64,000 bases of DNA from Scytalidium lignicola (Eukaryota > Ascomycota > Leotiomycetes). Under the pieces are notes generated by a model that saw nothing but the letters and a program-made list of their open reading frames with translations, had not been told where the DNA came from and ran no database searches. The position numbers were made by a program, and so were the translations under genes. Shown here piece after piece: positions 46,117 to 50,162 of the stretch (the first letter of the stretch is position 1; each line of letters opens with the position of its first letter). The stretch is taken from assembly GCA_002812745.2 (NCBI GenBank), contig NCSJ02000187.1, forward strand, positions 1-64,000, written 5' to 3'.

Positions 46117-49100
46117 ATGACGAGCATCGTTTTTACACCAGCCCTTGGGCAAACTGTCACGGTTGGGCCGGATACATCGGAGGTAACCATCTATGCAGTG
46201 AGCTTGAATCCTGTCAAGCTGGCCGCAAAATCTTTAATTGGTATCTTTGAATTCAACCAAACCACTGTTGAGTCAACTGGGGATATACATACTTATAAAT
46301 TGTCTCTACAATCATCAAGCTTGCCCAATCATATTTCCATCCTCGTAGATGATGCTGAGCTACCAGGCGAGATAATATTCACTCAGCAGCGTTTCTTCGG
46401 AGCAGACCAAGAGTTTTTGACAGAGGTTGTCATTGACGAACGAGAAGATTTCAAGAGCCAAAGAATTGACTGGCTCGACATAAATAATTGGGAAGGCTGG
46501 GCATGGTATAGGCCACGGGAAACTTGGATTGAAGCATCCTTTACCCCGCTGACGAAGTTGTTATCGGAAACTCCAACACATAATCTTCTTCTCCGCCCAA
46601 CAACAATAGCCAACATAGATAAGAAATCTGTTTTAGCAGTATTTCCAGCATCGTCTCCGGAGGCATTTATCCACCTGACTGCTGCTCGTGATGGTGAAGC
46701 TCCTGGTGTCTATGCTCGAGCGAGACGAGTTAAAAAGGGTGGCAAGATTGTTTCTTATGTGACGGGGAAGGTGAAAGCCAAAAAGGGGGAACTCGAAGCA
46801 ATTAAGGGCTCAATTGAGGTCGCGAGGCGAAAATATGGCTACTCCTTGGCTCCCTTTACTCGAGACACGAGCCCTGGTCCCTTTGATGGTCTTGGCTTTT
46901 GCACATGGTCCAGCATCGGTGAAGACGTGCCATTGACATACGACAATATCAAAGACCTAGTTGAAAAACTAGCTAAGTTTGATGTTCCTGTAGGTACATT
47001 CATTATAGATGACGGGTGGCAAGATATTCGTTATGGGCTCAACGGAAGTGAGAAGGCCAGGGGACTCTGGAGTTTCGCTGCATGGGAGGGAATGGGCGCT
47101 CCACTATCTGAAGTCGTATCTTTGATCAAGAAGACATTGCCCACGGTCAAGGATGTTGGCGTGTGGATGACACTACATGGATACTGGAACTCAATTGCTC
47201 CAACATCACCCTTGGCAAAGAAGTATGAAATGAAGATTCATAAGATAAACCGCGATTATATTCGGGGAATCAGCTGGCCAACGACTGAATTTGATGGGCA
47301 GCAAACGGGATCGATATCTAATCCGGAGAATCGGACATGGTGTTTGCCGCCACCTCATCTTGCTTATGCATTTTGGAGAGATTATTTCACGGATTGCTCA
47401 AATGCTGGTGTCACGTTCGCAAAGGTAGATGATCAGGCGTACGGTTCCCTCTTAGACTCTACCGAAGGTGGTGAAGCATTTGTTGCCCTATGGAATGGAA
47501 TGACGAGAGCAGCAAATGATGTGTTTGGTGAGAACAAAATTATCCACTGTATGGCTCATTATGAGCGTATGTTTAATGGTGACATTGGCATGGGAGTGGC
47601 CACAGGAGGAAAAAAGGTTGTTATTCGGAACTCGGATGACTTTGGCCTCAAACGACCGAATATCCACCGCAACCATATCCATTACAATATTTTCAACGCC
47701 ATGCTTACTTCCCAGCTTTCCCTCATCCCTGATCCAGATATGTTCATGACCAGCGCACAGTGGCCTGAATACCACGCAGTTCTAAGGGCTTTCTTCGAAG
47801 GACCTGTCTTACTGGCTGATAAGCCGGGACAATGCGACCTCAAAATTCTCAACAAGCTTGTGGGACGTACAGCAAACAATAGTTATGAAGTTCTTAGAGC
47901 TGCTACTACTATCAGGCCATTGTCAAGAAATGTCTGGGAACAATTTCTTGATGGGGATGTTGGACCGGCAATCAAGGGTGTTTCATATTTCCCCCAGCCA
48001 TCATCAGCATCTATTGTCCTCTGGAGCTCACGGAACGACGCCCTAGACAAGACTGCAGACATTATTTTTGAGAGCGACCTTATTGATGCTTTAGAAGGCA
48101 TTGAAGAACCAACTAGGCTCGAAGGGACTCATGATCTTGCTTTGTGGCTTTCCAATGCCCAGAAAGCAACTTCTGTCAAAATAAAATACTGCGAATCAGG
48201 AAAAGCTCTTGAGACTACTGCTTCACAGCCTGTAATATCCATATCATTAGACGTTCAGGGAATGGAAATCATAACAATTGCTCCTTACCAAAAGGTTAAC
48301 GGGTCAAGTGTTGCCTGTCTTGGCTTAATTGATAAGTATGCCGGACTAGCAGCAGTAAAAGGTATAGAAATACTTAGCAATAGACTAGTTGTTGACCTTA
48401 GCCATGCTGGCGTGGTTGGTTTCCTGGTCAAATCACAGTCAGAGGTCGTTGAAAAATACGTGACAATTGCAGTTAATGGTATTTCAACTAAATGTGTGGT
48501 CAAGTCTAAAGGAGATAAATTGTCCTTGGTTGAGGTCGATTTAACCGACATACAAGTTGTTTCTGGAAAGGAGACTTGGACTATAACCGTTGATGTTGAC
48601 GCAATTACCAATGGAGATATAAATGGTCGTTCACAGGGGAGTGTAAATGGTTTTATCGATGATATCACAATTGAGTCCTTTGACATTTACGGTTAGATTC
48701 ACAACCCTTTCTGAATTTAAACAAAGCTAACTAGAATAGATCTCCGATTCCCCACAAGTCTTGATCAATCCGGTTCAGATGCGATGAATCCCAAGGCAGA
48801 TTACAGTGCCTCTTATATTATACTCCATACCTCCAAGCCAGAGTTGAATGGTCACGGTTTTGCGTTCACGATTGGCCGTGGTAATGATCTTGTTTGTGCA
48901 GCTGCACGCCACATCGCTGAAAAGTTAGTCGGTAAAAGTCTAGCAGAGCTCACCCAAAACATGGGCAAGACATGGAGATACCTAGTTAGTGACTCTCAAC
49001 TGCGGTGGGTTGGTCCAGAGAAAGGCGTAATTCATCTCGGATTGAGTACCTGTGTCAATGCATTATGGGATCTCTGGGCTCGTCATTTGGAAAAGCCAGT

Positions 49101-50162
49101 GTGGCAGGTTATAGTGGAAATGTCACCAGAAGAATTTGTCCGATGCATTGACTTCCGGTATATCTCAGATGCTATAACTCCGGAGGAGGCCATCAAACTT
49201 CTGTCTGAGCTCGAGGGCACAAAGCATGACAGGATAGAAGATGCAAAAAATAACAATGCAGTCCCAGCCTACTCGACACAAGCAGGATGGCTGGGTTTCT
49301 CAGACGAGAGAATGACCGAACTAATGAAAGGTATGCTAGAGGACGGCTTTGACAAATTTAAGTTGAAGGTCGGCGGAAATCTCGAAGATGATAAACGTCG
49401 ACTAAAACTCGCTCGTGAAGTAATTGGATATGACAGAATGCTCATGGTTGATGCAAACCAAGTCTGGAGTGTACCAGAGGCTATAGAATACATGCTCCAA
49501 CTTGTTGAGTTCAAACCAGTGTAAGTTCTTTCCCTTCTACTGCCAAAACTACTATAAATATATTGACTTTCTCGTTCTTGGCTAGCTTCATTGAAGAACC
49601 AACATCACCAGACGACATATTAGGCCATGCAACCATCCGACGTGCACTTAAACCATACGGTGTGGGAGTCGCTACTGGAGAACACTGCCAGAATCGCGTT
49701 ATGTTCAAGCAGTTGTTACAAGCGGGTTCAATTGATTTCTGTCAAATTGACGCATGTCGACTTGGAGGGGTGAATGAGGTTATGGCGGTGTTATTGATGG
49801 CCAAAAAGTTTGCACCATATTTGCCCTGAGTTATTCTTCAAGTTAAGCTGACAATTTCTAGATTTAACGTGCCTATCGTACCACATAGCGGGGGTATAGG
49901 TCTCAACGAGTATACGCAACATCTTGCTCTAATCAACTATATCTCAGTAGCTGGGGAGAAGAGCTTGCTAGAGAATATCAATTCATTTAGTGAGGTTCTT
50001 ACTAATCCTTCGAAAGTAAGCAATGGTCACTTCATGACGCCTTGGGAATCTGGTTATAGCGTTGAATATAAAGCTGAGGCTGTCGAGAAATATCAATACC
50101 CAGAGGGATCGTTCTGGAGGTCGGCGCAGGGTCAGGAGATTTTGGATGGTCCTAAGCTCTAA
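46117..50162 (+). CDS. Predicted fusion: GH36 raffinose synthase/alpha-galactosidase + L-fuconate dehydratase
   Basis: Four exons, 46117-48691, 48740-49520, 49586-49807 and 49862-50162, total 3879 nt and 1292 aa, all phases correct. The GH36 half (Sip1/raffinose-synthase type) has GFCTWSSIGED, IIDDGWQDI, the nucleophile Asp in FAKVDDQAYG and the acid/base Asp in RNSDDF. No signal peptide, so it is intracellular. A Gly/Asn/Ser linker follows, then ITIESFDIY, spliced to DLRFPTSLDQSGSDAMN. The second half is an enolase-superfamily dehydratase close to fuconate dehydratase: the catalytic Lys in FKLKVGG, metal ligands in MVDANQ, IEEPTSPDD and TGEHC, and the general-base His in VPHSGG. No ATG lies between the two parts. 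If the 48692-48739 intron is not used, the GH36 ends at TAG (48694-48696) and two separate proteins result. Confidence 0.8.

What the first reader, a model, noticed from the sequence alone, without database searches (positions are those of the whole stretch)
46117..50162. Predicted GH36 raffinose synthase/alpha-galactosidase fused to an L-fuconate dehydratase
The GH36 frame continues without an intervening ATG into ITIESFDIY, which is what the N-terminus of fuconate dehydratase looks like. The conserved DLRFPTS block lies directly after a 48-bp intron with CTAAC branch and TAG acceptor. All four exons are in phase (3879 nt). Both halves keep every catalytic residue I can locate. I know of no described enzyme that joins a galactosidase to a sugar-acid dehydratase.
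Basis: partly seen in the sequence, partly recalled or inferred. Interest (0 to 1): 0.85.

Follow-up and report, generated by a model that had tools for sequence, protein, structure and literature searches.

The report
Fungal galactosidase fused to sugar-acid dehydratase
In one mould's genome, two sugar-processing enzymes that its relatives are recorded as making separately read as one long gene; it is probably a real, lineage-specific gene fusion, but no RNA or protein has been checked.

Summary
A 3,879-nt spliced frame (46117-50162; 1,292 aa, 143.1 kDa) joins a complete GH36/PF05691 protein to a complete enolase-superfamily dehydratase. There is no internal stop, and no in-frame ATG between 48262 and the DLRFPTS block.

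The genome is probably Scytalidium lignicola DSM 105466: contig C111 equals its reported largest contig, 505,685 bp.

All three introns share position and phase with a free-standing paralog on contig C227 (3 of 3), so intron 1 is an old dehydratase intron. The 21-residue linker has the length of N-terminal tails in this dehydratase clade (10-45, median 23; 29 of 31 rows). GH36 relatives end 0-12 residues past the same column (50 of 50).

No listed relative is fused: 0 of 38 long dehydratase proteins, 0 of 50 GH36 proteins. The dehydratase is sister to Hyaloscypha bicolor's (96/90), whose GH36 is listed on a contig of identical length.

Best reading: a lineage-specific in-frame fusion making one bifunctional protein, its second half a paralog of L-galactonate/L-fuconate dehydratase. 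Main rival: a one-base error in this Ion Torrent draft. RNA, reads and activity are untested.

The parts
46117..48600 (+). GH36 / PF05691 (raffinose synthase/Sip1-type) half, residues 1-828, a single exon, complete relative to family
   Evidence: Pfam; 50 homologs of 754-918 aa, best 69% identity at 96% coverage; family C-terminal end at this column
47428..47430 (+). Asp438 of KVDDQ, aligned to the Asp of KVDVQ in PDB 7exf (Ala in 7exg); role as nucleophile recalled
   Evidence: alignment; position
47635..47640 (+). Asp507-Asp508 of RNSDDF, aligned to RASDDF in 7exf; acid/base role recalled
   Evidence: alignment; position
48601..48663 (+). 21-residue linker (residues 829-849), of the length of the N-terminal tail of free-standing dehydratases of this clade; no in-frame ATG
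48664..48691 (+). Start of the dehydratase domain (ITIESFDIY + first base of the Asp codon), in the same exon as GH36
48692..48739 (+). Intron 1, 48 nt, phase 1; retention would end the protein at TAG 48694-48696, giving GH36 alone
   Evidence: same column and phase in paralog C227
48740..49520 (+). Dehydratase exon (DLRFPTS to FKPV)
49521..49585 (+). Intron 2, 65 nt, phase 2, shared with paralog C227
49586..49807 (+). Dehydratase exon (FIEEP to LLMAKK)
49808..49861 (+). Intron 3, 54 nt, phase 2, shared with paralog C227
49862..50162 (+). Last dehydratase exon with the PHSGG block and stop codon

Best explanation
In the lineage of this fungus (probably Scytalidium lignicola) two once separate, probably neighbouring genes have become one transcription unit: a GH36 (PF05691) glycosidase/transglycosidase and a paralog of L-galactonate/L-fuconate dehydratase. 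The GH36 stop, the intergenic DNA and the dehydratase's own start codon were lost, and the two frames joined in phase. Splicing of the old dehydratase intron 1 gives a 1,292-aa protein. In it the dehydratase's natural N-terminal tail acts as linker between a retaining alpha-galactoside-processing domain and a Mg-dependent sugar-acid dehydratase. Shown here: the open frame, the intron homology, complete and conserved domains, and no fused protein among the listed relatives. Inferred: neighbour ancestry, loss by deletion, a cytosolic place (no signal peptide seen by eye, no program run), expression as one protein, and activity of both halves. Whether the two reactions are metabolically coupled is unknown; the fusion may bring only shared regulation and fixed stoichiometry.
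For: One spliced frame of 1,292 codons without an internal stop. All three introns match the free-standing paralog C227 in column and phase (3 of 3), while canonical LGD on C111 has two introns elsewhere. GH36 relatives end 0-12 residues past the same column (50 of 50), and the linker (21 aa) fits the clade's tail lengths (29 of 31 rows measurable, 10-45, median 23). The fused dehydratase is sister to H. bicolor P0090 (96/90), not to own C227. H. bicolor's GH36 P0051 and P0090 are both listed on a contig of 1,265,361 bases. Catalytic blocks are conserved against solved structures. Against paralog C227 over 442 codons, dN is 0.15 (NG86; dS not computable, taken as saturated; the YN00 run failed), and differences at codon positions 1/2/3 are 85/48/261. 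The fused dehydratase's end branch (0.24) is shorter than its sister's (0.36).
Against: No listed relative shows the fusion: 0 of 38 long dehydratase proteins match GH36 and 0 of 50 GH36 proteins match the dehydratase at E<=1e-3. Only one draft assembly supports it. Of 64 one-base changes tried in runs of two or more bases in 48540-48691 (32 insertions, 32 deletions), 16 insertions and no deletion gave both a GH36 stop and an in-frame dehydratase ATG; 11 of the 16 lie in 48596-48654. No RNA or protein evidence was available. Linkage in relatives rests on equal contig lengths in one species; in Penicillium riverlandense, the only other species named in both lists, the contigs differ (3,470,598 and 3,369,837). 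Linker residues upstream of the TTTT run match the H. bicolor tail at only 4 of 17 positions (shuffle p 0.10), so tail homology is suggestive only. The paralog comparison covers time before the fusion, so purifying selection after it is not shown separately.
Confidence: 0.74

Rival explanations
1. Sequencing artefact: a single missed base in the roughly 100 nt around the junction of this draft joins two frames that in the organism are separate, GH36 ending near 48600 and the dehydratase starting at an overlapping or abutting ATG.
For: The S. lignicola genome was sequenced on Ion Torrent with about 5 million reads of 140-260 bases. 16 of 32 one-base insertions tested (and 0 of 32 deletions) would give both a GH36 stop and an in-frame ATG; the six in 48596-48614 would give a clade-like tail of about 24 residues.
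Against: It needs two same-strand eukaryotic genes that overlap or abut within tens of bases, which is itself abnormal. Five conserved-domain stretches elsewhere in the assembly (ACC, three chitin synthases, glucan synthase; 3,149 codons, about 9.4 kb) show no frameshift; the only stops inside them lie in GTAAGT..AG introns of two genes. That so many insertions 'work' shows the pattern is easy to get by chance.
Confidence: 0.13
2. One locus, two products: GH36 alone is made when intron 1 is retained (TAG at 48694) or from an earlier polyadenylation site, and the dehydratase alone from an internal promoter with a non-AUG start or a spliced upstream exon; the long frame is secondary.
For: Retention of intron 1 stops the frame at once. 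The listed relatives of both halves are free-standing in this respect.
Against: No in-frame ATG lies between 48262 and the DLRFPTS block. The next in-frame Met (MNPKADY) would lack the ITIESFDIYDLRFPTS stretch that aligns with solved relatives. No transcript data were available; alternative upstream exons were not enumerated.
Confidence: 0.09
3. The frame is real but the dehydratase half is no longer needed: the genome keeps two other copies, so the fusion is a recent neutral accident on the way to loss.
For: Intact paralogs exist on C227 and C111.
Against: No stop, frameshift or lost catalytic block in the dehydratase half; its branch is not lengthened.
Confidence: 0.04

Closest known systems
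Free-standing fungal PF05691/GH36 proteins (e.g. Hyaloscypha, Acephala, Phialocephala; one is named galactinol-sucrose galactosyltransferase 2)
   Same: 65-69% identity at 96% coverage for the 13 nearest rows, same C-terminal end, same catalytic blocks in the solved relative
   Different: All 50 listed are 754-918 aa, and none matches the dehydratase
Fungal L-galactonate dehydratase LGD1/GaaB and its paralog clade
   Same: Full-length similarity; intron positions of paralog C227; long N-terminal tail of the paralog clade
   Different: Free-standing, with own ATG in the copies read here. The fused copy lies in the paralog clade, not with canonical LGD
L-fuconate dehydratase (PDB 1yey/2hxt; Xanthomonas origin recalled) and human ENOSF1 (4a35; species recalled)
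   Same: Aligns nearly end to end with conserved KxK, D, E, E and D/H blocks
   Different: Not part of a GH36 fusion; substrate of the fungal copy untested
Other long proteins carrying this dehydratase (Pfam accessions of alanyl-tRNA synthetase, ABC, SDR, amidohydrolase and other domains; names partly recalled)
   Same: Dehydratase joined to an unrelated domain in predicted proteins
   Different: 0 of 38 has GH36; several may be prediction joins, not checked here

Membership tests
GH36, PF05691 branch | Match to the curated PF05691 profile above cut-off | tested here: met
   115.3 bits, cut-off 20; best stretch covers profile 170-552 of 750
GH36, PF05691 branch | Two catalytic aspartates (KxD and SDD blocks) | tested here: met
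   Aligned to 7exf/7exg; D438 and D507-508. Roles recalled
GH36, PF05691 branch | Alpha-galactoside hydrolase or transferase activity | not testable with these tools
   No assay. Hydrolase and raffinose-synthase-like transferase cannot be told apart here
L-fuconate / L-galactonate dehydratase (enolase superfamily, MR subgroup) | MR_MLE C-terminal domain and near end-to-end similarity to characterised members | tested here: met
   PF13378 185.6 bits; 4a35 E 1.7e-142, 1yey E 2.8e-135
L-fuconate / L-galactonate dehydratase (enolase superfamily, MR subgroup) | Metal ligands, KxK and Asp/His dyad | tested here: met
   K1066/K1068, D1096, E1122, E1151, D1174, H1201 lie in blocks identical or nearly so (positions). 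Roles recalled
L-fuconate / L-galactonate dehydratase (enolase superfamily, MR subgroup) | Complete N-terminal strand before DLRFPTS | tested here: met
   ITIESFDIY present, encoded in the GH36 exon
L-fuconate / L-galactonate dehydratase (enolase superfamily, MR subgroup) | Dehydration of L-fuconate or L-galactonate | not testable with these tools
   No assay
Canonical fungal LGD1/GaaB orthologs | Groups with canonical LGD in a tree | tested here: not met
   Falls in the 28-row paralog clade (100/100); own canonical copy is C111
Gene fusion | One uninterrupted spliced frame over two complete, elsewhere separate proteins, with no second in-frame ATG at the join | tested here: met
Gene fusion | Single transcript and single protein | not testable with these tools
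   No RNA or protein data

The most novel reading that the evidence does not exclude
A genuine bifunctional enzyme in which a GH36 domain and an L-galacto-configured sugar-acid dehydratase serve one intracellular route (for instance an alpha-galacturonosyl or galactosyl oligosaccharide whose released sugar is turned into the dehydratase's substrate). Retention of a 48-nt intron could serve as a switch between a GH36-only and a two-domain protein.
Probability: 0.1. Interest if true: 0.65.

Novelty: new variant of a known kind. Interest (0 to 1): 0.4.

Why it matters
Gene fusions often point to proteins that act together. If real, this one links a poorly characterised fungal GH36 branch to the L-galactonate/L-fuconate dehydratase family and offers a testable lead to the substrate of both. 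It also shows a eukaryotic fusion caught with the second gene's first exon and intron still recognisable. If it is a base error, it is a caution about fusion calls from Ion Torrent drafts.

Tried and rejected
Chance open frame: rejected as the whole story, because both halves are complete and intron 1 is homologous to the paralog's.

A passage of PMC12370193 reports, citing a paper that is not held, that A. niger GaaB is ten-fold more active on L-fuconate than on L-galactonate; the clade of the fused copy is a different one.

Linker homology by residue identity: 4 of 17 positions, shuffle p 0.10, so I rely on tail length and intron position instead. The 31 rows taken for tail length were P0089-P0116, P0118, P0119 and P0151; P0117, P0120 and P0128, which begin after the tail, were left out, two rows could not be measured, and not all 31 were in the tree.

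Pathway cluster: of the window's genes I put five through Pfam and saw a GDSL hydrolase, an MFS transporter, a P450, an Fe-ADH and a lyase, with no obvious sugar-acid neighbour; the rest of the window was not annotated. DNA of relatives could not be inspected (the genome collections held here are prokaryotic; metagenome scans are capped at 0), so adjacency in H. bicolor is inferred from equal contig lengths only.

Literature: no held paper has all of 'fuconate dehydratase', 'raffinose synthase' and 'fung'. 'GH36', 'fung', 'gene fusion' and 'dehydratase' together gave two fungal genome papers, seen in the listing only. 'fuconate dehydratase', 'fusion' and 'bifunctional' gave one paper on human HSD17B14, listing only. 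The listings (reinitiation; fungal GH36) were not followed further. So I found no description of such a fusion in those searches of open-licence PMC papers; subscription journals are mostly not held.

No structure prediction and no fold search was run.

Full report
Observation. They give 3,879 nt and a 1,292-aa protein of 143.08 kDa with a single terminal stop. The GH36 frame passes into ITIESFDIY with no in-frame ATG between 48262 and the DLRFPTS block, and if intron 1 were retained it would end at TAG 48694-48696. Pfam finds PF05691 and PF13378, both far above cut-off.

Both halves are whole. Among 50 GH36 relatives (754-918 aa), the C-terminus lies 0 to 12 residues past the column of the window's ..TITVDVD (50 of 50), so the GH36 family ends where the linker begins. 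The dehydratase half begins with the strand ITIESFDIY and runs to the end of the family: residues 7-433 of the 445-residue query align with 4a35 (mitochondrial enolase superfamily member 1) and 4-432 with 1yey (L-fuconate dehydratase). The catalytic blocks are kept: KVDD and RNSDDF against 7exf/7exg, and FKLKVGG, VDANQ, EEPTS, GEHCQ, QIDACR and PHSGG, identical or nearly so in the printed relatives. The roles of these residues are recalled, not tested.

Intron 1 comes from the dehydratase gene, and the linker probably does. The same genome carries a free-standing paralog on contig C227 (79% identity in the best-matching exon piece; 78% over 442 aligned codons). It opens with ATG, has a 23-residue tail, and has three introns in the same alignment columns and phases as the fused gene (33 phase 1, 295 phase 2, 369 phase 2; 3 of 3). 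The canonical copy on C111 has two introns at other places. The window's linker between the GH36 end and ITI is 21 residues. In the paralog clade the corresponding tails are 10-45 residues, median 23 (29 of 31 rows measurable), whereas rows P0122-P0208 without P0128 and P0151, mostly canonical LGD, have 1-9 residues in 80 and 26 in one of 81 measurable rows of 85. Residue by residue the tail similarity is weak (4 of 17 positions upstream of the TTTT run, shuffle p 0.10), so this point rests on length and intron position.

Origin. In a 38-row tree the fused dehydratase is sister to Hyaloscypha bicolor P0090 (96/90), while the C227 paralog is sister to a Scytalidium sp. 3C protein (100/98). H. 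bicolor's GH36 (P0051) and P0090 are both listed on a contig of 1,265,361 bases, which suggests linkage in that relative. In Penicillium riverlandense, the only other species named in both lists (50 GH36 rows; best 120 of 7,999 dehydratase rows), the contig lengths differ. In a 30-row tree the GH36 half joins a 14-row clade (SH-aLRT 100) that holds the Hyaloscypha, Acephala, Phialocephala, Hyphodiscus and Pseudogymnoascus rows and seven unnamed ones, as its first branch. The simplest history is two linked genes joined by loss of the DNA between them. The loss itself was not seen, because relatives' DNA could not be read.

No fused relative among the listed proteins. One search was set so that only proteins of 0.55-1.75 times the fusion's length could match its dehydratase half. 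It returned 38 proteins, none with PF05691. The GH36 half returned 50, none longer than 918 aa. BLASTP of the halves against these sets gave 0 of 38 and 0 of 50 cross-matches at E<=1e-3. Only the candidates sharing most words were scored (7,995 and 7,991). No row named S. lignicola appeared in the lists, so the published gene models of this genome could not be checked.

Is it a sequencing error? Contig C111 is 505,685 bases, exactly the largest contig reported for Scytalidium lignicola DSM 105466 (PMC6256649, whole text). The totals differ: 664 contigs and 46.85 Mb held here against 826 contigs and 47.7 Mb in the paper, perhaps because short contigs were dropped. That genome was assembled from about 5 million Ion Torrent reads of 140-260 bases. 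A script made 64 one-base changes in runs of two or more bases in 48540-48691. 16 of 32 insertions and 0 of 32 deletions gave both a GH36 stop and an in-frame dehydratase ATG; 11 of the 16 lie in 48596-48654. So this rival is live. Against it: the separate genes would have to overlap or abut within tens of bases. Also, five conserved-domain stretches elsewhere in the assembly (744, 544, 506, 824 and 531 codons; ACC, three chitin synthases, glucan synthase) show no frameshift. Stops occur inside two of them, and both sets lie in introns of the GTAAGT..AG kind. Of the ten matches in those three searches I examined five domains; four weaker chitin-synthase-family matches were not looked at beyond their rows, which list no stops. 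I give the rival 0.13.

Function. Against C227 the dehydratase half shows long-term constraint: dN 0.15, dS not computable (taken as saturated), 85/48/261 differences at codon positions 1/2/3 over 442 codons. This measures mostly time before the fusion. LGD-type enzymes are described as acting on L-galactonate, L-fuconate and D-arabonate (PMC12370193; abstract, outline and twelve passages seen). The same paper reports that L-fucose induction of lgd1 in Trichoderma reesei is lost without the regulator FUR1, and that the FUR1 core regulon includes putative alpha-galactosidases (it measured extracellular activity). That makes shared regulation a plausible benefit of joining such genes. No established pathway known to me feeds a GH36 product straight into such a dehydratase; a GH36 acting on galacturonosides would, by way of D-galacturonate and L-galactonate, but that is speculation.

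Verdict. A well-supported prediction of a lineage-specific gene fusion with a domain pair not seen in the searches made here, from one draft genome, without RNA or protein evidence. The label for the second half should be 'paralog of L-galactonate/L-fuconate dehydratase'.

Noticed in passing
L020 (G000:C227:42500-50500): The free-standing dehydratase paralog sits beside a sugar-transporter-like MFS gene and a fungal transcription-factor-domain gene, a possible small catabolic cluster.
   Followed up: partly
window 50327-51685 (-) and 44352-45167 (-): The fusion is flanked by an MFS_1 transporter and a GDSL-type hydrolase, both on the opposite strand.
   Followed up: partly
L022 (G000:C477:33500-39500): A second, distant PF05691 gene (32-33% identity in matched pieces) is in the genome.
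   Followed up: no
window 48692-48739: Intron 1 has the donor GTTAGA, whose retention puts TAG in frame at once, so unspliced RNA would encode a GH36-only protein.
   Followed up: no
window 1-43000: By eye several frames look like ketone-body, aromatic and tryptophan metabolism genes (thiolase, CoA-transferase, homogentisate dioxygenase-like, TrpB); recognised from memory, not tested (frames).
   Followed up: no
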